Positions 1 through 14,109 of a stretch of 64,000 bases of DNA are shown here, piece by piece. The stretch is from Laetiporus sulphureus 93-53 (lineage: Eukaryota > Basidiomycota > Agaricomycetes > Polyporales > Laetiporaceae): the NCBI RefSeq assembly GCF_001632365.1, contig NW_024468574.1, positions 9,943 through 73,942 on the forward strand, in the 5' to 3' direction. Positions within the stretch are counted from its first letter, which is position 1. Every line of letters begins with the position of its first letter. The translations under genes and the position numbers were made by a program. The notes under the pieces were generated by a model that ran no database searches, had not been told where the DNA came from, and saw only the letters and a program-made list of their open reading frames with translations.

Positions 1-1365
1 GAAGGGGTGTTTCCCACATCGTACACACAGCTTCTTCTCCAGCCATCCTTCTTGTTCCTTGGTGAGGGTGGATACTCGATTCACGACCATTGCGTTGGGG
101 TCTTTCGGGGCCCGTGGTGCCGATGATGATGATGTCGTAACCGTTCCATGTTGTCCTGCCTTGTCGGCTCTGAACTTGGACTCTAATTGAAGGCATAGGT
201 CGAGATATTCTGGCCATGTGATGGGGTCAGAAATTCCTAGACTGTCTCGTGTGACCATTGCCTGGCGTACGTCCTTGCTTCGGTGTTCAGCGATGTAACC
301 GATGAGTGCAGTGTGCCCTAAGTTGGTCTTAGTGGCCCATTGACGGAACTGTTCTGCGAAGGATACCATTGTGGGATACGTCTTGCCGCAGATATCCTTC
401 AAATGCTGCTGCACATCCTTGTCCGGGTCGAGGGTCCTGTAGTTCACTTTAAGAATGTTGACGAAGTCTTCCCATGTGCCAAGTGCCTGCCGTGCTGCTG
501 CTCTGGTCGCATATTCGGACATGTATGTGAACGCGCCACCTTCCAAGTGCAGTAAGGCCGTGGTAATCTTGTGTTCATCGTCGTTAATCTCATTCCACCG
601 CATCCATATACCGAGTTGTTGGAGCCAGTCCTCCAGACTTCCTTTGCCCGAGTAGTGTGGAGGTTCAGCAATTTTGATGTGTGGCTTGTGCGATTGGACC
701 GTGCTGGATGTTTGACCTTGCGTCGTAGTGACGCTGCTTGCTTTGAGCGAAGCTAGCTCATGTCGCAGCTTGACGTTAGCTGCCTTGATTTCCATCATTT
801 CTTTGCCTGTATCGAGCATTGCTGCCTGGGTTCCTGTGAGCTCGTCATTCAAAACTGTCATATGCACGTCTTGCACGAGGATTCTATCCTTGAGCTTCCC
901 GATCTCCGTCTGGAGCATTCCCTCCTTGAGTCGGTGTTCGCTCTTGTTGTTTTGGATCGTTGATTCAAAGGCTTTCTTGTGCTCGTACATCTTGTTTCCG
1001 AGCACATTGTAGACCTTGGCGATCTCAGTAGTGACCGTGAGCTTCATTGCCACGATTACCCATTCACGGATGTGGTCTGGGACTTCTCCGGGAGCGGATT
1101 GTCTGAGAGCATCTTCCAGGTACTCGAATTGGTGTCCATCAAACTCCCAGATGGGTGGGACGTAGGCTGGTACAAGTGATGGTGTCGGGGATGCTGGTCC
1201 TCCGACTTGTGATGCAGAGTCCTGCGGTCCTAGTGCAGGTTCTGGTGAATTGCGCTGCGAGGCGCGTGGGGTGCTTCCGTCATGTGCTGACTCAACGTTT
1301 GTATGCAGAATGTCATCCATTCTTTGCCTGAACGTGGATGCGTATGCACGATCAGCTCCTTCCAT
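1..1365 (-). CDS. gag: Retrotransposon Gag protein, 3' end cut by window edge
   Basis: A continuous minus-strand reading frame of about 455 codons starts at the ATG at 1365 and runs off the left edge. The N-terminal part is Ser/Pro-rich. A long heptad-rich helix around residues 110-190 should form a coiled coil. Next comes the Gag capsid-like section (PPHYSGKGSLEDWLQQ, then W-rich helices). The visible end has a zinc-knuckle start of the form CVRCGKHPF after LTKEQEGWLEKK, a layout common in fungal Ty3/gypsy Gag. Gag packages element RNA into cytoplasmic particles. Protease, reverse transcriptase and integrase would lie left of the window. No stop interrupts the visible frame, so the element may be recent. 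Family assignment is by pattern. Confidence 0.85.
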   Translation of the reverse strand, partial: MEGADRAYASTFRQRMDDILHTNVESAHDGSTPRASQRNSPEPALGPQDSASQVGGPASPTPSLVPAYVPPIWEFDGHQFEYLEDALRQSAPGEVPDHIREWVIVAMKLTVTTEIAKVYNVLGNKMYEHKKAFESTIQNNKSEHRLKEGMLQTEIGKLKDRILVQDVHMTVLNDELTGTQAAMLDTGKEMMEIKAANVKLRHELASLKASSVTTTQGQTSSTVQSHKPHIKIAEPPHYSGKGSLEDWLQQLGIWMRWNEINDDEHKITTALLHLEGGAFTYMSEYATRAAARQALGTWEDFVNILKVNYRTLDPDKDVQQHLKDICGKTYPTMVSFAEQFRQWATKTNLGHTALIGYIAEHRSKDVRQAMVTRDSLGISDPITWPEYLDLCLQLESKFRADKAGQHGTVTTSSSSAPRAPKDPNAMVVNRVSTLTKEQEGWLEKKLCVRCGKHPF

Positions 1366-1386
1366 TGTGATATAGATGTAGTTAAA

Positions 1387-2244
1387 CTAATTGAAGATGA
1401 AGCCTAGGTACTGCTTGTCCTTGACTTTCCCAATCTCCCTGACGATCTCGTCTAACCTCTGCTGCTTCCCTATCTCCTTGAAGTTGATCCTTCCTATTTC
1501 TAGGCAGCACGTGTTGATGACCTGTTTGTCGACGAAGGTGTATTCACGAGTTCCCGTGTAGAGATCTGCGCAGACTTTGTCTAACTCCGATGCGAGGAGT
1601 TGTACCTTCTTTCGTTTGTCCTGATCAATTCTCTCCCAGAATGCTCCTAATATCAGTTGTAGTCTGAAGCGGGTAGCGGAGACCTGCTTCTTAAGTGTTT
1701 CGATGTGGAGGGTGGGCCTGACTTTGGACGGAAGAGGGCGAATGGGTCGTGCGTGTGTGTTGACCTTAACGAAGTTGGGAAGGGGTCGCACTGGCTGTGG
1801 AGCAACAATGATGGGGGGAACGGCGTTGGAGGTGATAAGCTCTGGGGGTGGTGCCGGCTTGCGACTACCAGTGGTAAGACGTCCCTTTCTGGGCTTGTAG
1901 CGTTCAAGCGGTGGGGTGTGATCGCGTGGCTTGCAGATGATTCCGCGCTTTATGATGTGTGTGGTATCTACAACCCTAGCTGCTGCTCGCTGCCTGTCTG
2001 TGGATGATGCACCTAGTGACGCAAGTGTGAGAAGCCTTCCACGCTCCTTGTTGGTTTCCTGATGCTTGTAGTGGGCGTCAAGGTCGATCCTGGGGGTGGC
2101 CTTGCGCTTTGAGGCTTTGGGCAGCTCAGAGTCTTGCTGAGGCTCACGCCGGGTAGAGATTGGATTGGAATGTATGTCAAAAAAGCCACGCGCTACGGCT
2201 GAAACTGCTTGCGCTGAAAATACGCGGCCGCTTGTGTTAAACAC
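1387..2244 (-). CDS. 285-codon ORF upstream of Gag in the same retroelement (function unknown)
   Basis: This open frame encodes a basic, Arg/Lys/Pro-rich protein of 285 residues (central segment TGSRKPAPPPELITSN). It ends in a TAG whose first base is 1389. The Gag ATG lies 24 bases downstream in the same frame, with no other stop between them. I recognise no domain. Such a basic protein could bind nucleic acid, but that is a guess. It is placed between the putative LTR promoter and gag, so it is probably part of the element. It could be translated separately, or joined to Gag by stop readthrough. Confidence 0.55.
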   Translation of the reverse strand: MFNTSGRVFSAQAVSAVARGFFDIHSNPISTRREPQQDSELPKASKRKATPRIDLDAHYKHQETNKERGRLLTLASLGASSTDRQRAAARVVDTTHIIKRGIICKPRDHTPPLERYKPRKGRLTTGSRKPAPPPELITSNAVPPIIVAPQPVRPLPNFVKVNTHARPIRPLPSKVRPTLHIETLKKQVSATRFRLQLILGAFWERIDQDKRKKVQLLASELDKVCADLYTGTREYTFVDKQVINTCCLEIGRINFKEIGKQQRLDEIVREIGKVKDKQYLGFIFN

Positions 2245-3180
2245 TAAGCAGGGGCGCAGAAAATGTCAGATTGTTTCTAATGTCACGGTAACACCGGACA
2301 AGAGATCAAAAAGACTAAAAAGGGACAGTCACGTGGAACGTGCCGCCCTGATCCCCCTGATCCCAAAGGTATCCCCCTGAACCCTATGTGGCGCAAGAGC
2401 CTGTTGACTTACTGGTCAATGTTGACAGACGCAGGAAAGGGCGAGAGATATATGAAGGAGCTGGTGAGCTCAGTGGGTGCTACAGGTAGTAGACGAGGAG
2501 AAACAATCTGAGGTTTCGTCCCCTACATGGCTGGTCTTATATACACATACAGCAGGCTATCTTACCTAAGCTACCTATCTACGGGTATAAGCAAATGGCC
2601 GTACATGAAACAATAGGATGTCCGGAAGTAGAACAATAAGTGGGAAGATCGATGGTTGCCGCAGTAATGCGTGTGCACATCGTGCCTATCTTGGTTTCCC
2701 TTTTGTTCTCCGATGTGAACATCGTACCTATCTAGGCTTCTGGCTAAACTAATAGGAAGCGGAAGGCCGATGCATAACAATAGTCCTTGTTCCCTTTGTT
2801 CCCAAATGGGTGCCTCTATTGTATCCTGGAATAGACAGGTCCGACCGTATCATCCACAGGTCTGGACCATAACATGTGATGTGGACTATCACCTGATCTC
2901 TACGCATCGCGTCTGTGGCTGAGTGGCATGAGATATTGGTGAAGCACGTGATCTGTGGTGTGAGAAAAGTCACGTGCGGACTTTGTGGCGAAAATCTGTG
3001 ACACACGTTGAGAACTCCGAATTGCAAATGGAGGATTCCGCTGCATAGATTATAGTACGTGCAGTAGAACAGTCGATCGACGATCAATAAAGGCAAAATG
3101 GTATAAAGGTGTAATGGAATATCGCGAATATTAGAAAGAAAAAGGAGGCACATACCGTGCTAGTGTAAACGGATTTGCAC
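2245..3180 (-). mobile_element. Probable 5' LTR and leader of the Gag element
   Basis: This gene-free stretch lies upstream of the element ORFs. It holds the TATA box and the paired 20-bp repeats described separately. No ORF here looks like a gene. The LTR boundary is unproven because no partner LTR is in the window. Confidence 0.4.
2536..2543 (-). promoter_or_regulatory. Putative TATA box of the retroelement 5' LTR
   Basis: The minus strand reads TATATAAG here, about 290 bases upstream of the first element ORF (ATG at 2244). That fits an RNA polymerase II promoter in a 5' LTR. Upstream on the same strand are two 20-bp direct repeats (2674-2694 and 2716-2736; core ACATCGTRCCTATCT) that could be enhancer-like. 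The exact LTR ends and primer-binding site could not be fixed because the second LTR is outside the window. Confidence 0.4.
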
Positions 3181-3268
3181 AGATCAACCCAAGAGTTAGA
3201 TCACTTCCTCTTAATGAGAATCTCCAGCAACACGGACTTCGTATTCTCGAGGAAGGAAATCAATGCAA

Positions 3269-3320
3269 GTCATTATAAATTGCGGTCAAACCAGAAGACC
3301 CCAAAGCAATATAAAATGAC
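3269..3320 (+). repeat. Folded motif M1, copy 1
   Basis: Three nested stems: GTCATT/AATGAC, ATTGC/GCAAT and GGTC/GACC. A symmetric ATAA/ATAA internal loop separates the first two, and a 5-nt bulge lies on the 3' side of the inner stem. The terminal loop is A-rich (3288-3296). Confidence 0.7.
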
Positions 3321-3346
3321 AACAAACGGATAACCTGAAGAAGCGC

Positions 3347-3369
3347 ATCTGTTTAAATCACAAACAGAT
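3347..3369 (+). repeat. Heptaloop hairpin 1 (loop AAATCAC)
   Basis: Perfect 8-bp stem (ATCTGTTT/AAACAGAT) closes the 7-nt loop AAATCAC at 3355-3361. Confidence 0.85.
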
Positions 3370-3415
3370 ACAAGTCGAGGTTGTGTAACAACTTGATTTG
3401 CAAACAAGTTGACAC

Positions 3416-3438
3416 CATTGATTAAATCACAATCAATG
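3416..3438 (+). repeat. Heptaloop hairpin 2 (loop AAATCAC)
   Basis: Perfect 8-bp stem (CATTGATT/AATCAATG) closes exactly the same loop, AAATCAC at 3424-3430, as hairpin 1. The stem sequence is unrelated to hairpin 1. Confidence 0.85.
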
Positions 3439-3774
3439 AAAATAATCGACAGCCAGTATAAGGCCTTGTAGTCGATCTATGCCTCGCCGACGGTTGATAA
3501 CTCCACACCGTCGCAAAAGAATAGAAATGCTATACGAAAATACAAATTTTCTGTGATGTTCAGAAAGTATCTTCGCAAGCGGTATAGCAAGCATTTCGTC
3601 AAGCCCTGTCAGCAGAATTAGGCCTAGTTAGCCAATTCATTTAAATCATCTATATCGCCTCTCGTGCAATAAAGTCTTCTTCATATAAAAAGACACGAGC
3701 TTAATAGGCAATAAGGGCATGACACCATAACATCAAGTTCCCGTGCACTCAATCAACCTTTGTCATTTAAGGCA

Positions 3775-3805
3775 GTACTGGCAGCTTTGAGCGCCATAAA
3801 AATAC
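3775..3805 (+). repeat. Motif M2, copy 1
   Basis: Core ACTGGCNGCTTTRAGC; inner stem GGC(a)GC/GCGCC. The outer GTA/TAC pairing is weak. Aligns with copies at 4580 and 5715. Confidence 0.55.
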
Positions 3806-3830
3806 AATAAGCCCGACATGACTGGTAAAG

Positions 3831-3851
3831 CATCCTTACATCACAAGGATG
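3831..3851 (+). repeat. Heptaloop hairpin 3 (loop ACATCAC)
   Basis: Perfect 7-bp stem (CATCCTT/AAGGATG) closes ACATCAC at 3838-3844. The same stem arms recur at 4541-4547 and 4609-4615, where they enclose motif M2 copy 2 instead. Confidence 0.8.
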
Positions 3852-4539
3852 GAATACTCCAATATGAATATCTTTAGTCGAAAAGGCGTCCGGAGATAAT
3901 AGGAGATAATAATATAACTCTCAGTAATCGAAACTGCTCAATCGCTAACGGACCCTTCTCAACAAAAAGAAATTCGGAGATATTCACCAAGGTTTATAAG
4001 AGACAATACCTTCATTAAATCAGCGAATAAGGCTGGGGAGCCAAAAATCATTCGTTGAGGGAACTTTCATTAAACCAAGAATATGCTGACCGAACATTCT
4101 TGGCAATACCGATGGAAAGATTCTAATCCCTGCAATCGATCACATTATGAAGGATCAGGTCGATCAGCAAAACACATCAACCGGCTACATGCGAGTCTAG
4201 CCGATGACCGCCAATAAACCGTGAGTAAAGGTTGAAAAATTACCTTTCTCTTGATTATTCAGAGGAACAGGACACCGCTTAAAATCAATGCAGATAATAA
4301 GTAAATCAGGCATCCAGTGTTCATGGAGATTTGACTCCACTACAACCGGTAAAAGGCTCTACTATTCCTAACCGGCCAACGAACACCTGATAGACAAAAA
4401 ATGAATTATAATTCATTGTCCTTATTACATTGCCACCTATTCGGTACCACCAAAGCATACAAATCATTGCTTGTCTTTAGAGCTTCTCTCACTGCTGCTC
4501 ACACGATCAGTTCGAACTTGCCTCATATTCGAAGACAAT

Positions 4540-4616
4540 ACATCCTTATGTCCCTTATATAAGTCAAACCTATTTTCCTGACTGGCAGCTTTAAGCGTCA
4601 CTATAGTCAAGGATGT
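4540..4616 (+). repeat. Motif M2, copy 2, inside an 8-bp outer stem
   Basis: M2 core at 4580-4608 is closed by GACT/AGTC. An outer perfect stem ACATCCTT/AAGGATGT (4540-4547/4609-4616) abuts it directly on the 3' side. Confidence 0.6.
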
Positions 4617-5087
4617 TTGCACTTGGACGTAAATAAGGAGGTCTTTCGACAAAGGCACTAAATGTTCCTACGATCAAAATAAAAAGTTGAATCTGTCCGG
4701 CAATACTTAATTGTATTTTGACGGACTACTCAATGAGCCTAATAGCAAAAAGAGATCAACGCTCTTGCGCGCAATAGTAACGAACGACTAAATCAGCTAA
4801 ATAACCTAACGACATCCACTGGAGTGCGGCAAATGCTATAAGTTTTATGCTTTATGCAATTTTTCTATGCATCATGCATCTTTTTAAGAAAAATATAAAA
4901 CACCGCACGACGAAGGGGATGAGCAATAACAGTTCTGATTCATTGGTACTTCGGTGTTGGGCTGAGCACCCAACACACACGATCTACGAGTACCTCGTTC
5001 CTACATATAAATTGCCTAATATGCGCACAAGACCTCGGTACACGAAGGGTAATTAAAGAGCAAACCTGAATTTTCAAACGACCATAT

Positions 5088-5112
5088 TATCTGTCTACAT
5101 CACTGGCAGATA
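5088..5112 (+). repeat. Heptaloop hairpin 4 (loop ACATCAC)
   Basis: Stem of 8 pairs including one G-T wobble, with a T-T closing mismatch, around ACATCAC at 5097-5103. Confidence 0.6.
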
Positions 5113-5181
5113 CAAGTGGAAATGCTATGTCCAGGAGAACATAACCTCGAAGAGGGGGTAGAAAAGCAAAAATCGCTAGCC

Positions 5182-5236
5182 ATATATTATAAATTGCGAC
5201 CAAAAAGTAAAGGTCCTGATGCAATATAAAATATAT
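5182..5236 (+). repeat. Folded motif M1, copy 2
   Basis: Same architecture as copy 1: ATATATT/AATATAT, ATAA/ATAA internal loop, ATTGC/GCAAT, then GACC/GGTC. The outer stem differs and the inner stem is swapped strand for strand, so pairing is kept although the bases changed. Confidence 0.7.
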
Positions 5237-5320
5237 AGCAACCTCTCGAGAAAACTCCGCCAGATGAGGACAATTCCTTCAAGCATTCACTACCACTTGA
5301 ACTAGTGTAGTCAACGACCA

Positions 5321-5378
5321 CATGCATTATAAATCACAGTTCAAACAAAATGAACCCTAATGCGATAAAAAGTGCATG
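5321..5378 (+). repeat. Folded motif M1, copy 3
   Basis: Outer stem CATGCATT/AGTGCATG (one T-G wobble), ATAA/AAAA internal loop, a weaker ATCAC/GCGAT stem with one mismatch, then GTTC/GAAC around an A-rich loop. Again the pairing is kept with different bases. Confidence 0.65.
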
Positions 5379-5557
5379 CTTCAAGAGACCTACGTCTACA
5401 AAAGACGTCAAAACTGACTTCAAGACAGAACATAACCCTCAAGGTTTCAGATCCTTATTGAGCAAATAAGAGACAAGCTCCTCAAAACGTATCGAAATAT
5501 TCCATAATCCATAAAATAGAAACTTGTGCTATACCAATAAGAAGAAAGACAGTCCAC

Positions 5558-5574
5558 AGTCCACATCACTGACT
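5558..5574 (+). repeat. Heptaloop hairpin 5 (loop ACATCAC, short stem)
   Basis: AGTC/GACT stem with a C-T closing mismatch around ACATCAC at 5563-5569. The stem is only 4 bp, so this one is weak alone. Confidence 0.4.
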
Positions 5575-5714
5575 TTAAAAGAACGTTCAGGACCTGGTGT
5601 CTAACTTTAAAAAGGTATCTCCAAGCACACATAAAAGTTCTATTATAGGGATTGGCAATAATGATGACACCACGTTTCTATCAAAAGGAATCTTTATGCT
5701 GCTGTGAATGGGTA

Positions 5715-5745
5715 GCACTGGCCGCTTTGAGCACCATGGAAGTGC
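5715..5745 (+). repeat. Motif M2, copy 3
   Basis: Same core, closed by GCACT/AGTGC where copy 2 has GACT/AGTC. The closing stem differs but still pairs. Confidence 0.6.
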
Positions 5746-6343
5746 ACTAAACCTAACCAGTAGTAATTCCAATTGATCTTAAGGAAACAGTTCGTCATGG
5801 ACTAGTTATGAGACTCGGATCATTAGTGACATCTAGTACTCTCGCCTATATAACTCCTCGAAGAACTAGGATGCAAAAGGACCTTAAGCACACCTTGGTG
5901 GAAGATCATTTTATTCCTGAAGCAAATAATCAACACCTAGTAGCAAGGTTCAGTTCATGGTCACGACTTAAGTTGCGCCTTGCATGTAAAAGGCTGATAA
6001 AATCACTGCGATACTTCAAGTCAAACACGGACAACCTGCTGCGTTGGTATTTGAATGACGGAATGTGCTGCACTTCACTGTGCCTTTAAGCATCTCAGAT
6101 CTTTTCACCTCGACGAAGTAAAATTGGATCAAAAAGGAACGAACCGACGTGCAAAACGTTATCCAGTTATATTAGTCACTTGTGCTGTCCTTGATAATCC
6201 TGCGGAACTTCCGTAAAAGTGGGAGCAAAGCCCAACACTTCGACGGAGCTCAGGCCTTAAAAAGGGGGTACTGTCACAAATACAGTCCTTGTGACCCTAA
6301 CCATTCTCATATAAATACCCTAAGCGCCAGCACTAAGCGCTGG

Positions 6344-6370
6344 ACCAGGCTATACATCACTTAGCCAGGT
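6344..6370 (+). repeat. Heptaloop hairpin 6 (loop ACATCAC)
   Basis: ACC-a-GGCTA pairs with TAGCC-a-GGT (8 pairs, one A-A mismatch). A T-T closing mismatch surrounds ACATCAC at 6354-6360, as in hairpin 4. Confidence 0.65.
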
Positions 6371-6381
6371 ATCCAAGCGCA

Positions 6382-6402
6382 CATCTGTATATTACACGGA
6401 TG
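6382..6402 (+). repeat. Heptaloop hairpin 7 (loop ATATTAC)
   Basis: CATCTGT pairs with ACGGATG (7 pairs, one T-G wobble) around the 7-nt loop ATATTAC at 6389-6395. Confidence 0.65.
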
Positions 6403-6416
6403 GTGCTGACGCACAT

Positions 6417-6438
6417 AGCATATTACATTACATATGCT
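6417..6438 (+). repeat. Heptaloop hairpin 8 (loop ACATTAC plus one T)
   Basis: Perfect 7-bp stem AGCATAT/ATATGCT. The loop is T followed by ACATTAC (6425-6431). Confidence 0.7.
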
Positions 6439-6617
6439 GGTATAGAGAATAGGTTACACGGGTTACCTGTGAAGGGCTAGATCCAATATATAGTCTCATG
6501 TCCTCGCGTGACCTCCAGCAGGCTATGCTGCTACAAGGGCCTACAGCCGAAAGGTGCCCAGTAAGCGTAGAACGAAGAAAATCTAGTCACGTGACTAAAA
6601 GCCCTAAAAAGGAATAC

Positions 6618-6723
6618 GTCACAAATGTGCCGATCATATACAATCTGACACAATGGATCATATCACGATCATAGTTCCCAAGGGAACCATTGAGTCCTAC
6701 AATAGATTGTATCGGCACGTGAC
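6618..6723 (+). repeat. Four-tier branched hairpin, 106 nt
   Basis: Nested stems are 6618-6622/6719-6723 (5 bp), 6627-6634/6711-6718 (8 bp), 6640-6646/6704-6710 (7 bp) and 6651-6656/6687-6692 (6 bp). Inside, two terminal hairpins branch: GATC-ATATCAC-GATC (6656-6670, another member of the heptaloop family) and TTCCC-AA-GGGAA (6675-6686). The two innermost stems share base 6656, so one pair must open. Confidence 0.75.
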
Positions 6724-6969
6724 TTATCGGGATCAACCAGAGATCAATTGACTAGTCGCCGATATAAGTCCTGGCCATTAAGCCACATAGGACTTGCGAC
6801 CTATTAATAGTCATGGAGATAGATCTCATAGCATCTATTAGACTGAACCAACCAACCTCAATCCTAGTCTCTCCAAGAGACCTGCTAAAGGATTAGAGCA
6901 AGGCAGTCTACGCTATCCTTATCCCGAAGATACGACAGAACGGCCTTTTACTAGACTTAGCATATGTGA

Positions 6970-7005
6970 CAACCCGATCCCCGAACAGGATCCTCAATAG
7001 GGTTG
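6970..7005 (+). repeat. Two-tier hairpin with 3'-side bulge
   Basis: CAACCC/GGGTTG stacks directly on GATCC/GGATC with a 7-nt loop (6981-6987) and a 7-nt bulge on the 3' side (6993-6999). The same plan is seen at 6860-6894 and 7015-7059. Confidence 0.65.
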
Positions 7006-7124
7006 CGACATTAAGTCTGAGCCTTTCAGAGCCATAAAAGGTCTAGAGTAATCTCAGACATCATTGTGCACAGTATATCACATGCGAATCACATAATGAT
7101 GTCACGAGTCCAGACCTATCTCAA

Positions 7125-7139
7125 GTACACATCACGTAC
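7125..7139 (+). repeat. Heptaloop hairpin 10 (loop ACATCAC, GTAC stem)
   Basis: GTAC on both sides pairs around ACATCAC at 7129-7135. The stem is short (4 bp). Confidence 0.45.
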
Positions 7140-7222
7140 AAGCTCAGATCCACAGACCGGATAAGATCTGACCCTGATAAGAGGCCACCGATCCGGCATC
7201 TAAAGAAGTCTTGATCCGGTTC

Positions 7223-7297
7223 CCACTTGATATTAGAAGAAGCCATGACTGAGTCTTCTATAGACTCCTGTATTAGTCTTGGCCGATATCAAAGTGG
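7223..7297 (+). repeat. Three-way junction fold, 75 nt
   Basis: Outer stem CCACTT+GATAT pairs with ATATC+AAGTGG (11 pairs, one bulged A). Inside are hairpins AGAAGA/TCTTCT (7235-7259) and AGACT/AGTCT (7262-7279). It is tRNA-sized, but no tRNA box A or B is evident. Confidence 0.65.
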
Positions 7298-7452
7298 ATC
7301 TCCGGGGCACTGTCGGGTGTTTCACCTTGACAGTTGTGGGATACGTAATTCCTGATGGAAATACGTAAACGTCTAGTGGGGATCCAAAGAGGTTCCTTCA
7401 GTTAAGGGTACTCACGGTGCAAGCCATGGTCCAATAGATACACGTAGTTATA

Positions 7453-7476
7453 ATAAGGTCATAAGGTCATAAGGTC
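7453..7476 (+). repeat. Tandem repeat, 3 x 8 bp
   Basis: Three perfect head-to-tail copies of ATAAGGTC. Confidence 0.95.
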
Positions 7477-7890
7477 ATGAGCAATGAAGCGGCGCCATTA
7501 GAAGGTATTTGGCGCAGCACCTCATCGTATGTGTACAATAAGGTAGGTTCCCACACTGGCTCGATCTGTAGGTCCATACCCAGTATCAGGGGTCCTGGAT
7601 CTAACATACTTGCCATATAAGGGTTCCTAGTATACATACGTATTATAATATGAAGTAGGATAGACGGTATATCAGGGTACTCCCCTGCTTGTATATATAC
7701 TAGGGTCAACTGGGAGTAGATCCCCAGTTCTATCATACTTCTCCACCTGGGGCTCACTCCTATCTGAGTCCTAAGGGACTGGCTAGCAATCTAGGTCAAT
7801 GACCGTTCGACATGGGACTTCAGGCCGCCCAACTGAGGGCCTGCTTGTAGTTGTGTAGTGATACACATTATCCTGCCACCACCCTCTCTA

Positions 7891-7909
7891 GTCGCCATAT
7901 CACGTCGAC
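7891..7909 (+). repeat. Heptaloop hairpin 11 (loop ATATCAC)
   Basis: GTCG-c-C pairs with G-t-CGAC (5 pairs, one C-T mismatch) around ATATCAC at 7897-7903. Confidence 0.5.
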
Positions 7910-8020
7910 CATTATGGGTTGGTTCTGGATGTTAGAGGTAATTCATGTCTAGTCAGGACTACATAGGTGCTGACACATTAGCTTGTGTTCGGAGACTATT
8001 CCCTAGTAGTTCGTGACAAA

Positions 8021-8302
8021 GATGCATTCTAGGAAACAGCTCATCATGAATATATGTTATTTTTATTACTGCTTATTGCCCTACAATGTGAACTCTGTGC
8101 GCACCTTGACCGGCGCTTAATCTGGTGGCTACCGCAACATTATTTGATGTCTAAATCCTGGTCTGCCACAAGAAAAATATTTCCTTGGCTTAAGATGCAT
8201 TCTAGGGAAGGGCACATCACAGAAGTAAGTCATTTAGATTGCTACTTATGGCCCTAGAATGTGAACTCTGTGCGCACCAATTACCTTGACTGGCGCTTAT
8301 TC
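8021..8302 (+). repeat. Diverged direct repeat of about 100 bp (8021-8121 and 8194-8302)
   Basis: Both copies begin GATGCATTCTAGG and share the segment TGTGAACTCTGTGCGCACC, then CTTGACYGGCGCTTA. The second copy alone ends in a perfect 8-bp hairpin (8291-8310). Function is unknown. Confidence 0.8.
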
Positions 8303-8310
8303 AAGCGCCA

Positions 8311-8798
8311 AGTTTCTCACAGGCACGTGACAGCAAGCCTTGTTGCCGCAAGATGTCTGCGGTGACACCCACAAACTTGACTTTATGCATATACGCTATC
8401 TGAGATATGGACGCAACACAAACATCATTCTCTAGTATCTCTGGAACATTCTACAGCAAAGACAACAGCCTTGAGATGCTTCAGCCAGTCCCATCAAGAC
8501 CGTTTCATGCAAGATCAGGTCAGTTGAGACTCGACGCTAACTAGATCTGTGGCCAGTGGTCCTGATCATCTACAGAATTCAATAGTTCTCCCATTCTTTC
8601 CAGCTCTTCTTCTTCCCGTATCAGTCCTTTTCAGAGCAGTTATCATGATGAACACTACAGCACCTCCGATCCAGCCAGCACAGAGACTCTATTCTTGCCA
8701 CCAACACCATTCAATCGCATGCATAACTTCTGCAATAACTCAGTGGGTACATTTTCTTTAAATCATAAGCCAATTGATCAGACAAGCTGTAGGTGAGC
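8311..8798. other. Gene-free spacer
   Basis: No convincing coding exon, repeat or RNA gene was seen. It is presumably the upstream region of the gene starting at 8799. Confidence 0.4.
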
Positions 8799-11121
8799 AT
8801 GCTGCCATCAATGCTTTCTCCCAGCCTCACTGAAGCCTCTCATCAAGTATTGCTCTCACAAAATCGCGCATATAGCGACCTCTTCAGCAAATATACACAC
8901 ATTGAAAGAAAGTACAGTCAAATTCAAGCACAACATGGTGCTCTAAAGTAAGTAACGGCTTAACTACACTCATCGGCATGCCACTAGCTATGCTCAATGT
9001 CATACAGAGATGTCTATAATGGCCTGCTCCTGAGAATCCAACACGTTGAAGGCACGAATGTCAGTCTTGCAACGTCGTCAGTCAACCATTCATTCATGCT
9101 GCCCCCTGCTGCTCCCTCTCTTGCTGCTGATCACTCGTCTACACTTTTGGCCGGCCCGCTGGAGCCCTATGACCCAGATAATTACCCTGCAACTGGACAT
9201 CTTGGTCATGGAGAAATAGGAGGACCGCCGAAAATTGTGACATTGCCCATGGCATCAAACACAACTCTACGACTCGCAATGGCATCCAGTAAGTGCACAG
9301 TGATGAGGAATCTTTAAATGCTACTAACCCCGTTAGATCTGCGAAAGCTGCAGTGAACCCAGAAAACTATGAGTTCATCGAGGACCGCAATGGCAGAGCT
9401 GTCTCCGAAGCAAGAGCTGAGGACATAAGGAACTTTGCGCATGCAATCTGGCATCAGCTTCGACAGAAGGGGAAGGCGACACCTAAATGGGGGCTCATAG
9501 ACGCAGAGTCACTCACATTGTACCTTGACATGATGGCGAGGCACTTCGAGGAGATGCGTCTTTGTGACTCTCATTGGAAGGCCAAGAAGCTTGCAACGAT
9601 GGCTTATCTGACCTTCTACAAGTATCACGTCAGGCTCAAGGCAGAGGAGCAGAATAAGCCTCAACCTAAGCCAAGATTGCTGAAACGCCGCAGCAAGGAC
9701 AGCCCGATGCACCTTTCAAAGCGCCGCAAGTCTTCTAGAGGTACCCTAGGTGACGTATACTAATCCATGCGCTGCCAGTATCTGGTTACAATGAATCTGA
9801 TGCAATTTTACAATAGATACGTCGTCCTATCCCTCTGGAAGAGCGATGCCAACTGCACAGCCTCAGCCAGCTGCCTCTTCAAGCTCATCTGCTGCTGAAC
9901 GAGTGGCTGCAATGACACCCCATGCTCATATTCCCCCCAAGTTCTCCGAACCCACCATTTTCACGTCTCAGAAAGCAGCCATTGTAACCGGTAACGCTTC
10001 TCGTGAATAATTGATGGCGACCACTGATGTGACAGTATGCTGCAGATGTATGCAACACCGATGGCCTCAACACTTCAGTCTCGCTGCCAGCAAGTTTCTC
10101 TATTACTCGTACCACTGGCAAAATGCCATCGCTTCAACAGGAGCTCACTAATGCTACTCAAGATGCTGCCGCCATGCTTGCAGTCCAGACACAGCCAACG
10201 GCATGCAATATGCCTTCATCATGCGACATGAATGATGTTCTTGCCACCACCGAGTCCACTACTACACCCATTACTGCGAATTCCAATGCCTCACTGTCTG
10301 TCATCGATGACGTTTACTCTCAGTCCATCTCCCTGGAACCAATCTTTGGTGCACTTCCCATGGACAGCACTAACACGCATGAAACAGATGACATTTCTGC
10401 TACAGATTCTCTGCCGCCGTCTGAGGTGCCCGGGGCACACATGCTAGAGGTCAGCAAGCTGTACGCTATGCATACTGGAGATGATGCTAACACAATCTTG
10501 GCGTTTTCAGATTGTAAACCCGCTGTACGTGTGGATAGTCATTTCGGAACTATGGTGCTCACAGCATCCTTAGCCAATGCATAACAAGCCTACGCGCTCG
10601 TGAAAAGCAACGCGCAGCCTCAGGAACGGAGTTGGCTTCCGCTGCAAGCAGCAAAGATAGTACGAATACTGCATAGATGGCTTCGCATTGCTGATCTCGT
10701 GTAGGTGCCCTACTTGCCCTTGCCCAGATCGCTTCTGGATCGCAGGCATCCTCTGCTCAAGAAGATGTGGCCACACATCCAACATTGGCTTTCGAAGTCA
10801 AGCAGAAGAATCAGACAAAGCCAGTGAAGCTGCATTACAACAAGAATTCGAACTCTGTCAGGTGCGTCTTATGCATCATAACAATCCATTGATTTATACA
10901 CGTAATGTGTCAGTTTTGTGTAGGAATCTCTATCTCAAAGACTACCTTGAACTCCATCCTAACGCAACCGATAAGAATGCTTTTGAAGCGTCATTCTGAG
11001 GCCTTTCACCCGACGAGCTAAAGGTATGTACTCTCGGGATTATGGTGCATTGGAATACTTGACATATGATTATGATCAGAAATATGAAGATCTTCGCAGC
11101 CAGGCTTCAAAGCAGAAATGA
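8799..11121 (+). CDS. Uncharacterised multi-exon protein, possibly with a premature stop
   Basis: Exons 8799-8947, 9008-9288, 9348-9740, 9817-9990 and 10046 onward join in one frame at GT-AG borders. Exon 3 holds the best-ordered part (DRNGRAVSEARAEDIRNF, then an aromatic helical stretch and a basic tail with RLLKRRSK). The later part is Ser/Thr-rich and likely disordered. I recognise no domain. The frame stops at 10584. However, coding-like exons follow at about 10707-10861 and 10923-11028, and then 11080-11121, where a TGA (10997-10999) interrupts a frame that otherwise continues as GLSPDELK and across an intron. The gene may therefore end early, use another splice near 10.5 kb, or be decaying. 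The basic region hints at a nuclear or DNA-binding role, which is inference. Confidence 0.55.
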
Positions 11122-12255
11122 AATACAGTGGCAGCTTAGCTAGGTATAGTCGCGCTGTCATGCACATGAAGAAATTACATTAACTATCTATTCTATGTCC
11201 AGAGATCGAGCGAAGGGCGAGCGAAAATGTGACATAGCAGGACGTAGTGGAGTGTGGGGCATGTGTGTGACGATCGAGGCAGAGAAAGGGTGAGCCGAGC
11301 GAGATGGGGGAGAACGGGAGACATCAGGGTGGATATGGGGCTATCGGGAGAAGCGGGGCCGGGGAGGCAGCGAACGAAAGGGGAAATAAGGGAGAAAGGG
11401 ACGAATTACATGCATATATTCTGTGTAGCTCTGCCCCGATCAAACCTGTTTTGCACCAGTGAAAAAGTCCGTATTTGTCGTGCAAGGTGGGATAGAACGG
11501 GGCGCTTACAATGCTCGAATTCGTCTCAATTTGCCTCACTCCGACCATACGGGATTTTCACTGGGTCTCACTACTCACCATCATCAAACCAGAGTGTGGG
11601 CTCCATAGTGAGAGTAGTCAGGCTGCGGAAGTGTGGTTTACTCCTCAGCCGGGCTATTATCTTCGGCAACAAAGCATGACCACAGCGGCAGGACAACTGG
11701 CTCTATCTGCAATGATTCAGATACCCTGGTATCAATACAACAGATGAACGGGGAGGATCAACAACCACGAAAACAAGTCAAACATTATTCAGAGCGCAAG
11801 TCGAGGGAAGATTCAACCAAGGCTGGCAGACAGCTCGCAGAATTAATTGGTACGAGGACTTCCAAAATGCAGCCGTCTTTGTTTCCCAATCATTCTCGAT
11901 TCAATTAACGGTCCTTTGTATACTTCGCATGTTGTTTGTAATGCTTGTATGAATCAATGGACGGTACTGTTGCCGCATGTCCCAAGATGCCTAGATGAAG
12001 CCACTAGGTCAAGACTTTTTGCGTCGATACTCGACAGTTGACGGGCAGGCGTATGTCTCCTTAACGCGTGAGGTCAAACTTAGATACTACCAAGCGACTC
12101 TTACGTGTCGCGGACGGATGCAGGGTTCAACTAGCGAAAATGGGTATTACATAGATACTAGTATGCAGATCCCCTACATACGACACCATTTCTTTGGTAT
12201 CTAGAGCTTGCTCTTTGAGTCCGTATCCAAGCAAGAACCGCGCCCAGCCGTCCGC
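11122..12255. other. Gene-free spacer
   Basis: Only short overlapping ORFs without recognisable motifs; a G-rich plus strand at about 11.2-11.4 kb. I see no supported gene. Confidence 0.4.
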
Positions 12256-13757
12256 TCAGTTCTGATCCTCAACGAGCGACTTCGCCGCTTTCAGGTCGGC
12301 CTCTACCATCTCTTTCACGAGCGAGTCGAAGTCGACCTTGCGCTTCCAGCCGAGCAGGCGCTCGGCTTTTGCAGGGTTTCCGAGCAGAAGGCTAAGGGGA
12401 AGGGAGGTCATACCAATTTGAAACTCGCACCACACAGACAGAGAAGCAGACGCACTCGACTTCAGCGGGACGGAAATACCCCGGGTCGACCTTGACGACC
12501 ACCTTGCCTGTCTTAGCGTCGATGCCTTCCTCGTTTGTCCCAGAGCCTCGCCATCTATCATGCAGACGTCAGCCAAGGACGGCGGTCATTGGATCGTGAC
12601 CACTTACTTGATCTCCATGCCAAGCAGGCCGAACGCCTTCTCGACGAACTCGCGGACACGATGCGTCTCACCTGTGGCGAGGACGAAGTCCTCTGGGCCG
12701 TCCTGCTGCAGCATTCGCCACATCCCCTCCACGTAGTCAGCAGCTGTGGGAAGTGTGAATATAAGCGCATATAGTTTGCTAGGAAGGGCCCTGACCGTGT
12801 CCCCAGTCACGCTGCGCGTCTATGTTACCGAGGTAGAGGCAGGACTGCTTGCCCAACGAGATGTCTGCAGCCGCGCGCGAGATCTTGCGCGTGACAAACG
12901 TCCGCCCCCGACGCGGACTCTCGTGATTGAAGAGGATGCCGTTGCAAGCATACATTCCGTACGCTTCGCGGTAATTGACGGTGATCCAGAACGCGTACAG
13001 CTTCGCGACGCCGTACGGGCTGCGCGGGTAGAAGGGGGTCGTCTCGCTCTGGAGTGTCTCAACGACCTTGCCATAGAGCTCGGACGTCGACGCCTGGTAG
13101 AAGCGCACGTGCTTATCGAGCCCACACGTCCGGATTGCGTCGAGCAGGCGAAGCGTGCCTAGTCCATCGACATTGCCCGTGTACTCGGCCATCTCGAACG
13201 AGACCTTGACGTGCGACTGCGCGCCGAGGTTGTACACCTCGGTCGGCTGCACTTGTGCGATGATGTACACGAGGTTCGTGCTGTCGCTTAGGTCGCCGTA
13301 GTGCAACTTGAACTTGTTGGGCCCTGCGAGAAGTTGAGCGGCATATGGAGTTAACAGGGGCGGGGACGTACGCTCGTGTTGGTCTGAGTAGAGATGGTGC
13401 AGACGGCTCGTGTTGAAACTTGAAGAGCGACGGATGATGCCGTGGACCTCATAGCCCTTCGACAGGAGTAGCTCAGTCCTGTAGCGCTTATAAGCTGCAA
13501 CGTTCACGCATGTCACGCGAGTCCCGAGGTACAACTTTCCAGACAATCACAAAGTGCTGACACTCACAAGTATGATCCATCTTGCCCGGTAATACCTGTA
13601 CGCAGCAATCGTCAGCACCACCAACGTGCCCTCCGGACATGCGAACAATTCACCCGGAGATGAGCGCGACCTTGCGCTTGCGGTATTCATCAGGAGGGGG
13701 CAAGTTCAATTTCACCAACGGCGAGAATGGAGCAGGGACGTCGGCGATCTGAGACAT
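12256..13757 (-). CDS. gmd: GDP-mannose 4,6-dehydratase
   Basis: This NAD(P)-dependent short-chain dehydratase turns cytosolic GDP-mannose into GDP-4-keto-6-deoxy-mannose, the first step toward GDP-fucose or GDP-rhamnose. The first exon (ATG at 13757) and a tiny second exon join to give the Rossmann start [14 protein letters not shown]. Next come [20 protein letters not shown], the nucleotide-binding [19 protein letters not shown], the catalytic STSELYGK and YGVAK (Tyr/Lys pair). Exon 5 carries [13 protein letters not shown], and the end is [13 protein letters not shown]. All family blocks appear in order over about six exons. The size of roughly 370 residues is usual. No epimerase-reductase partner is in the window. 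Splice sites all fit GT-AG. Confidence 0.95.
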
Positions 13758-14109
13758 GGTAGGAGTATCGAAGAAGATGCCAGGGAGGTAACAAGACAGG
13801 AGTCTTATTAGTATTTGGCGTCAACTGTGCGCCTGAGGACACCACCTCGGCGTCAAGCGTGCGGGTGTTATAAGCCGGGGTGGAACTTTTGTGCAGACGT
13901 CGACGACGAGGGCCGGATGCAGAACGCAAGACGAGTAGGTGAAGATGCACTGGATAGTTGGTTGGTCGCTGGCGATGCCAGCAGCAATGTATTGGCATCG
14001 CTGATTGCCGAGATCGGCGACGTACTTCTCAACGACTTTCCCCAGCTCTCCCCTGAGCATGAGATACTTGCTACCGTGCTCAAAGCTTAGAGCTAGACAT
14101 ATAAGTCGG

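What the first reader, a model, noticed from the sequence alone, without database searches (positions are those of the whole stretch)
3340..7910. Family of stem-loops sharing the heptaloop ANATYAC on unrelated stems
At least eleven plus-strand hairpins present the same 7-nt loop (AAATCAC, ACATCAC, ATATCAC, ACATTAC or ATATTAC) at 3355, 3424, 3838, 5097, 5563, 6354, 6389, 6425, 6660, 7129 and 7897. The stems are different sequences, up to 8 perfect pairs, and several keep pairing through T-G wobbles. About fifteen ANATYAC heptamers lie on the plus strand of this 4.6 kb, against two or three expected for even base composition. A conserved loop on freely varying stems suggests that something recognises the loop: an RNA-binding protein, or a hairpin-specific nuclease or recombinase. 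The loop is loosely like rolling-circle origin loops ending in ATTAC, but that is only an analogy.
Basis: partly seen in the sequence, partly recalled or inferred. Interest (0 to 1): 0.9.

Follow-up and report, generated by a model that had tools for sequence, protein, structure and literature searches.

The report
Repeated loop-tagged hairpins in fungal retrotransposon
A non-autonomous LTR retrotransposon of a mushroom-forming fungus carries about a dozen RNA hairpins whose stems change but whose seven-letter loop is largely kept, which suggests that something, probably an RNA-binding protein, reads the loop.

Summary
The hairpin family is real. ANATYAC loops closed by at least 5 bp occur 6 times in window 3004-8018, against 0.02 in shuffles, and never in 8019-64000 on either strand. 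They belong to one repeat: a non-autonomous LTR retrotransposon of an agaricomycete (1.75-kb LTRs, TGTCAC...GTGACA, 5-bp target duplications, polypurine tract). Related copies show compensatory stem changes under kept loops, and corrected folding energies favour the plus strand; raw wobble counts do not. The element also has a 144-codon ORF without detected homologue, broken in the three copies seen, with marks of past purifying selection. It shares its PPT/LTR junction and a 64-bp gag-start stretch with a larger Ty3-like family whose three copies examined lack the hairpins. Best reading: dispersed sites for a trans-acting RNA-binding protein (packaging, retention or export of the RNA). Recognition itself is inferred. 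Rivals: kissing loops, or hairpin-templated mutation plus module duplication. New variant of a known kind.

The parts
6272..8018 (+). 3' LTR of the element (1747 bp, TGTCAC...GTGACA)
   Evidence: Related LTRs elsewhere in the genome with the same ends; exact 5-bp target duplications at C19, C74, C41 and C6
3004..6271 (+). Right 3.3 kb of the internal region, noncoding; the left part is cut off in the window by a nested repeat
   Evidence: Copies at C94, C19, C74; longest ORF wholly inside is 93 aa (ORFs of 80 aa or more)
6259..6268 (+). Polypurine tract AAAAAGGGGG before the 3' LTR
   Evidence: Sequence; AAAAGGGGGTACTGTCACA has 52 genome sites with up to 2 mismatches, 4 of them this element's copies; 0 for the reversed control
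7661..7727 (+). Likely core promoter with TATATATA at 7692-7699; would put U3 at about 6272-7725
   Evidence: 79-82% similar to 5 other loci; resembles the larger family's promoter by eye; inference. A second TATAAATA lies at about 6312
3347..3369 (+). Hairpin, loop AAATCAC, 8 bp
   Evidence: 4 of 4 copies keep stem and loop; T-A to G-C double change
3416..3438 (+). Hairpin, loop AAATCAC, 8 bp
   Evidence: Loop in 2 of 4 copies; the other 2 keep a hairpin with another loop
3831..3851 (+). Hairpin, loop ACATCAC, 7 bp
   Evidence: Heptamer in 4 of 4 copies; C19 has one more loop base, C74 a wobble and an A.A
5089..5111 (+). Hairpin, loop U-ACATCAC-U, 7 bp
   Evidence: 4 of 4 copies, with G.U variants
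6348..6366 (+). Hairpin, loop U-ACATCAC-U, 5 bp
   Evidence: G-C/A-U double change, 6 and 6 of 12 rows; loop ANATYAC in 9 of 12 rows
6382..6402 (+). Hairpin, loop ATATTAC, 7 bp
   Evidence: Loop in 9 of 12 rows; U.G in 8, U-A in 4 of 12 at one pair
6418..6437 (+). Hairpin, loop T+ACATTAC in the window, heptaloop in other copies
6656..6670 (+). Hairpin GATC/GATC, loop ATATCAC here
   Evidence: Only 1 of 12 rows has ANATYAC
7125..7139 (+). Hairpin, loop ACATCAC, 4 bp
   Evidence: T-A to C-G double change; loop in 13 of 14 rows
3548..3566 (+). Hairpin TTTCTG-TGATGTT-CAGAAA, loop complementary to ACATCA: the kissing candidate
   Evidence: Stem double change, loop kept in 4 of 4; a loop with GTRATNT is expected by chance at P 0.05-0.13
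4954..4976 (+). Hairpin without the motif, stem changed at several pairs between copies
   Evidence: well paired in 3 of 4 copies
4180..4205 (+). Hairpin without the motif, C-G to T-A double change, A.C mismatch in the window
3271..3317 (+). Module TTATAAATTGC...GCAATATAAAA, with relatives near 5185 and 5325
   Evidence: D2, D9
3777..3796 (+). Module ACTGGCAGCTTTGAGCGCCA, again at 4581 and 5717
   Evidence: D4; similar copies in L009 near 3745 and 4221 by eye
1..3003 (-). High-copy repeat, LTR element-like, nested into the element; not part of the hairpin system
   Evidence: 42 matches listed in the genome; none of its 4 minus-strand heptamers in a hairpin

Best explanation
The hairpins are RNA recognition sites dispersed along the genomic RNA of a non-autonomous LTR retrotransposon. 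Shown by sequence: the element is an LTR retrotransposon; its internal region is mostly noncoding and structured beyond shuffled controls; stems co-vary between copies while the loop A-H-A-U-Y-A-C (H = A, C or U) is mostly kept; the hairpins lie downstream of a small ORF and in the LTR. Inferred: the transcript folds, a trans-acting RNA-binding protein binds the loops, and several sites per RNA give cooperative binding that helps package, retain or export this RNA so that it can be copied by the machinery of another element. Candidate binders, in the order I favour: a host RNA-binding protein (about 0.25 of the total), the element's own 144-codon protein with its basic C-terminal part (0.2), the Gag of a helper element (0.15). 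The shared polypurine tract and 64-bp gag-start stretch suggest that the Ty3-like family of about 8.9 kb seen at C63 is the helper. Since the copies of it that I examined lack the hairpins, these would be this element's own addition and not the helper's basic packaging signal.
For: Enrichment and confinement. Covariation with kept loop: left hairpin GTGACT/AGTCGC and GTGGTT/AACCGC; double changes at 3355, 6354 and 7129. Perfect stems of 5 bp or more: Watson-Crick double changes 63 observed against 14.5 expected from unpaired substitution rates (right internal), 10 against 2.7 (left), 325 against 145 (LTR) (cells of related copies are not independent). Fold gain over column shuffles larger on plus: -241 against -193 (right internal), -190 against -159 (left), -210 against -174 (LTR), -31 against -26 (first part of LTR). 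Mean local z of the LTR -2.35 on plus and -1.47 on minus, of the left part -1.89 and -1.10, of host DNA about 0.1. ORF: 0 gapped codons among 144 in three copies, pN/pS 0.30, 0.39, 0.41 against 0.53-1.88 in the other two frames. Helper link: the 64-bp stretch at 20 loci outside the element and the PPT/LTR junction at 48 sites outside it; 7 of the 20 loci have such a site 7.2-7.6 kb away in the same orientation; one of these, C63, was read.
Against: No binding or expression data. Raw wobble counts do not single out the plus strand: in the right internal part G.U 64 (115 expected) but A.C 123 (146 expected), in the LTR G.U 528 (838) and A.C 702 (918); among the ANATYAC hairpins alone G.U 10 and A.C 6 types. 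For LTR stems of 7 bp or more there is no excess of double changes (15 against 20.9). The single-sequence z of the right internal part does not favour plus (-0.80 against -0.97), and the left and right parts of a Ty3-like element are also below zero. The loop is not kept everywhere: 3424 in 2 of 4, 6660 in 1 of 12. Loop columns vary less than all columns in the right internal part (1 of 21 against 685 of 3213) and LTR (3 of 21 against 592 of 1706) but hardly in the left part (4 of 21 against 478 of 2172); 3424, 6425, 6660 and 7075 were left out of that count, which favours conservation. For the ORF, noncoding control stretches gave pN/pS 0.43-0.90, so the lowest control overlaps nearly with the ORF values. 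The presumed helper has 0 hairpins at its 12, 1 and 5 RNATYAC sites in three copies, one whole with withheld parts and two 5' ends.
Confidence: 0.6

Rival explanations
1. Kissing loops. The ANATYAC loops pair with a complementary loop, either the hairpin at 3548-3566 in the same or a second RNA molecule, or an outside RNA, and shape or dimerise the RNA. C or U at positions 2 and 5 would both pair with G in GUGAUGU.
For: Loop TGATGTT with closing G-C kept in 4 of 4 copies while its stem has a double change. Ty1 RNA has complementary 7-nt motifs in two hairpins that are proposed to start dimerisation (PMC5454406, passages seen).
Against: One receptor for about a dozen donors; chance of such a loop P 0.05-0.13; 4 of 13 loops have A at position 2, which does not pair with G.
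Confidence: 0.17
2. No loop recognition. Palindromes are kept and made alike by template switching of reverse transcriptase or polymerase at hairpins, and the loop recurs because structured modules were duplicated.
For: G.U is not favoured over A.C in perfect stems. Repeated modules at 3271/5185/5325 and 3777/4581/5717, and 3355 and 5097 share a 32-nt stretch at 81%.
Against: Plus-strand fold gain in all four blocks; stem changes with the same loop kept; outside the hairpins themselves, most of the flank matches among the 13 are overlaps of near neighbours.
Confidence: 0.17
3. Chance or base composition in an A-rich, low-GC repeat.
For: The stretch is A-rich and the motif was chosen after looking.
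Against: 6 observed against 0.02-0.045 in dinucleotide shuffles of three copies; stems co-vary.
Confidence: 0.02

Closest known systems
LARD (large retrotransposon derivatives) and TRIM non-autonomous LTR retrotransposons
   Same: LTR elements without gag-pol that are said to specify conserved RNA secondary structure and to depend on autonomous elements (PMC7215508, passages seen)
   Different: A fungus, an ORF with marks of past selection, and many hairpins with one loop; the passages of PMC7215508 that I saw describe an LTR super-hairpin of Cassandra and no such loop family
Dispersed packaging signals of RNA viruses and hepatitis B virus
   Same: Several stem-loops with a shared loop recognition motif (RGAG in HBV; (x)xYA in MS2) scattered over a genome packaged as RNA (PMC8677749 and PMC6281560, passages seen)
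   Different: An LTR retrotransposon; no capsid protein of its own known; binding untested; the examined copies of the presumed helper lack the loops
Ty1 5' RNA structure with 7-nt kissing motifs
   Same: LTR retrotransposon RNA with functional hairpin motifs of 7 nt (PMC5454406, passages seen)
   Different: Ty1 has two complementary motifs near the 5' end; here one loop recurs about a dozen times, downstream of the ORF and in the LTR
Ty3-like family of the same genome (C63, L046)
   Same: PPT/LTR junction within 2 mismatches, a 64-bp gag-start stretch with a CTGAC-G/A-TTC-C/T-GTCAG hairpin
   Different: LTR 715 bp, long frames, no ANATYAC hairpins in the copies examined

Membership tests
LTR retrotransposon | Long terminal repeats with TG...CA ends | tested here: met
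   TGTCAC...GTGACA, 1.65-1.75 kb; pairs in C19 (right one partly withheld) and C74
LTR retrotransposon | Short target-site duplication | tested here: met
   Of 8 copies printed with both sides, 5 bp exact at 4 (C19, C74, C41, C6), one base off at C26, not readable at C35, C50, C46 where an LTR end is cut or interrupted
LTR retrotransposon | Polypurine tract next to the 3' LTR | tested here: met
   4 of 4 copies with internal right end exact over AAAAGGGGGTACTGTCACA
LTR retrotransposon | Primer-binding site after the 5' LTR | tested here: inconclusive
   Sequence after the LTR is kept in 3 copies but I recognised no tRNA end by eye
LARD-like non-autonomous element | No gag-pol in the internal region | tested here: met
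   Longest ORF in the internal parts of L009, L011, L007 is 122 aa, minus strand (ORFs of 80 aa or more); ORF pieces without Pfam match. Copies are decayed
LARD-like non-autonomous element | Encodes no protein | tested here: not met
   144-codon ORF with pN/pS 0.30-0.41 and no gapped codon in three copies; controls 0.43-0.90 with 1-10 gapped codons. It now has a stop in each of the three
Dispersed packaging signals | Several stem-loops with a shared loop motif on different stems | tested here: met
Dispersed packaging signals | Loop binds the capsid protein and promotes assembly | not testable with these tools
   Needs protein and assay
Dispersed packaging signals | Also present in the genome that encodes the capsid protein | tested here: not met
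   0 hairpins in three copies of the presumed helper, parts withheld or not fetched; another helper is possible

The most novel reading that the evidence does not exclude
A retrotransposon carries its own tag system: one small protein that it encodes and about a dozen hairpins whose loop that protein reads, so that a parasite of another element's machinery marks its own RNA for packaging or transport.
Probability: 0.18. Interest if true: 0.85.

Novelty: new variant of a known kind. Interest (0 to 1): 0.62.

Why it matters
How non-autonomous LTR elements get their RNA chosen by another element's proteins is, as far as I know, poorly understood. A set of about a dozen hairpins with one loop is a concrete candidate for such a mark, and the loop is short enough to test by pull-down and probing. 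In the listings and passages seen here I met no LTR retrotransposon with a repeated loop motif of this kind; the library holds open-licence papers only and I read no paper whole.

Tried and rejected
Rfam in 1-14000: two matches, E 0.17 and 4.5, both far below the gathering score. tRNA genes in L009: none. Homologues of the ORF: none; Pfam none; PDB one hit at E 0.73; AlphaFold of the open C50 piece has mean pLDDT 35.8 and was not used. Viral contigs: LTR start 0 matches; a 17-base module pattern 7 matches, probably chance for so short a pattern (not computed), not read. Early idea that R begins near 6345 because of TATAAATA at 6312: given up, since 7661-7727 is shared with other loci. Wobble test for the strand: does not favour plus; confounded because recent decay is almost pure transitions (window against C50 LTR 28 transitions, 0 transversions; C74 LTR pair 64 and 5). 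The sliding control is not fair because stems were chosen as paired in one row; one search is the better control. The pairing counts are partly circular, since hairpins were chosen for pairing. Counts left out three LTR rows (two partial ones and C46). KH-domain recognition of UCAY loops (Nova) is recalled; the search for it found one paper, listing only, that does not help.
Full report
WHERE IT IS. The window is G000:C65:9943-73942 of a 38.6-Mb genome in 124 contigs. A GDP-mannose dehydratase ORF at 12779-13546 has its named matches in Agaricomycetes; among the best is Gelatoporia subvermispora at 90% (120 of 8000 listed), so this is a mushroom-forming fungus, perhaps of the Polyporales. Window 1-3003 is a high-copy repeat (42 matches listed) that sits inside our element. 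The hairpins lie in 3004-8018.

THE OBSERVATION. In 3100-8300 there are 18 plus-strand ANATYAC heptamers against 5.0 in dinucleotide shuffles (maximum 13 in 1000), and 2 on the minus strand. Closed by at least 5 pairs, with a U.U mismatch allowed next to the loop, there are 6 in window 3004-8018, 6 in the C19 copy and 6 in the C74 copy, against 0.021, 0.042 and 0.045 in 2000 shuffles each (maximum 2). There are none, even at 4 pairs, in window 8019-64000 on either strand, in 4.4 kb of the C94 Ty3-like element, or on the minus strand of window 1-3003. On the minus strand of the element the C19 copy has one 4-bp case.

WHAT CARRIES IT. The stretch is repeated: C94 (94%), C19 (83 and 90%), C74 (80 and 88%) for the right internal part, C50 for the left part, and further LTRs for which no internal match was found. 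C19 and C74 show the whole plan: LTR, internal region (5.6 kb in C19), LTR. Target duplications of 5 bp (4 exact of 8 read), TGTCAC...GTGACA ends and a polypurine tract show an LTR retrotransposon. LTR pairs are 97.4% (C19, over 891 positions) and 95.8% (C74, over 1649) identical. The internal part has no ORF above 122 aa. It has one 144-codon frame at L009:3200-3631. Three copies (C19, C74, C50) align there without a gapped codon, with pN/pS 0.30, 0.39 and 0.41; the other two frames give 0.53-1.88 and three noncoding control stretches 0.43-0.90 with 1-10 gapped codons. Each of its three stop positions is TGA in one or two copies and CGA or CAA in another. No homologue was found.

RELATION TO A LARGER FAMILY. 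Nucleotides 55-118 of the internal region match 20 loci outside the element at 83-89%, and the PPT/LTR junction has 52 sites with up to 2 mismatches, 48 of them outside this element, and 0 for the reversed control. In 7 of the 20 (C63, C98, C24 twice, C60, C47, C17) the two lie 7.2-7.6 kb apart in one orientation. The C63 copy has a 715-bp LTR pair at 98.6% and long frames, part of it withheld; the C94 copy has Retrotrans_gag and retroviral protease matches. This is the likely helper. No ANATYAC hairpin was seen in its copies at C94, C63 and the 5' ends at C60 and C98.

STRUCTURE AND COVARIATION. Across copies stems change on both sides while the loop mostly stays. Left hairpin 1162: GCGACT[ACATTCC]AGTCGC (C19, loop lost), GTGACT[ACATCAC]AGTCGC (C74), GTGGTT[ACATCAC]AACCGC (C50). 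Left hairpin 1249: A-U, G.U and G-C at one pair in three copies, the loop being ANATYAC in two. Window 3355, 6354 and 7129 each have a double change. Hairpins without the motif co-vary too, such as 4954, 4180, 3548 and left 1327, so the whole trailer looks like a structured RNA, not the ANATYAC hairpins alone. Double changes expected from unpaired rates are exceeded 2.2-4.4 times at perfect stems of 5 bp or more, but for LTR stems of 7 bp or more there is no excess (15 against 20.9). Column-shuffle corrected folding favours plus in all four blocks (10 shuffles each, 40 for the short one). Against this, A.C exceeds G.U in perfect stems, and it stays a little higher among states seen in three or more LTR rows (27 against 25). 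Recent decay by transitions blurs that test.

LOOP. In 13 chosen hairpins the loop is A, A/C/T, A, T, C/T, A, C; G never stands at position 2, though one related row of 6354 reads AGATCAT. The model R1 built from them, run over 12 sources (153,873 bases), gave 59 matches up to E 5. All 47 up to E 0.3 lie in the element on its plus strand; those outside the element are window 56833 and 26315, both minus, at E 0.48 and 1.7; one match at E 3.6 is on the element's minus strand, at the 3548-type hairpin of C19. The 13 match by construction.

DISTRIBUTION. If the promoter is at 7661-7727 (inferred), the hairpins lie downstream of the ORF: left 1162, 1249, 1633, 1709, then window 3355, 3424, 3838, 5097, and the U3 of the LTR. 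Some recur by descent: 3355 and 5097 share 32 nt at 81%, and modules recur at spacings of 1.7-1.9 kb. In a comparison with the hairpins masked, most flank matches are overlaps of near neighbours; a short match of the GGC module before left 1162, left 1633 and 3838 is the clearest exception.

READING. I take the hairpins as binding sites of a trans-acting RNA-binding protein on the RNA of a non-autonomous retrotransposon (0.6). The steps shown by sequence are: repeat, element type, structure beyond controls, covariation, loop retention in most copies. Binding, the identity of the binder and its effect are inferred. Kissing loops and templated mutation with module duplication are the rivals.

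Noticed in passing
window 8019-8278: Two copies of an 87-nt unit (80% identical) next to the LTR; each could form a long hairpin around ATTCTAGG/CCTAGAAT by eye. A 95% match to 8019-8642 lies near the end of contig C43.
   Followed up: partly
window 6272-8018 against C50 LTR (L016): 28 transitions and no transversion separate the two LTRs; C74 LTR pair 64 and 5. Decay after insertion is almost pure transitions, as in methylation- or RIP-like mutation.
   Followed up: partly
L011, about 2849-3471: The C74 copy has an insert within the left internal region, made of two similar units that begin with TGTCACAGTATGACC.
   Followed up: no
L009:2690-2753: 64 bp shared with the gag start of a larger Ty3-like family, with a hairpin CTGACG-TTC-CGTCAG that has a double change in C74: a candidate shared packaging signal.
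   Followed up: partly
window 3777-3796, 4581-4600, 5717-5736: A second recurring hairpin, TGGC-A-GCT-TTG-AGC-GCCA, three times in the window and by eye about twice more in L009; three times it starts 47-61 nt before an ANATYAC loop.
   Followed up: partly
window 3271-3317, 5185-5232, 5325-5350: A third recurring module, TTATAAATTGC (TTATAAATCAC at 5325) followed by different inner stems and GCAATATAAAA-like ends.
   Followed up: no
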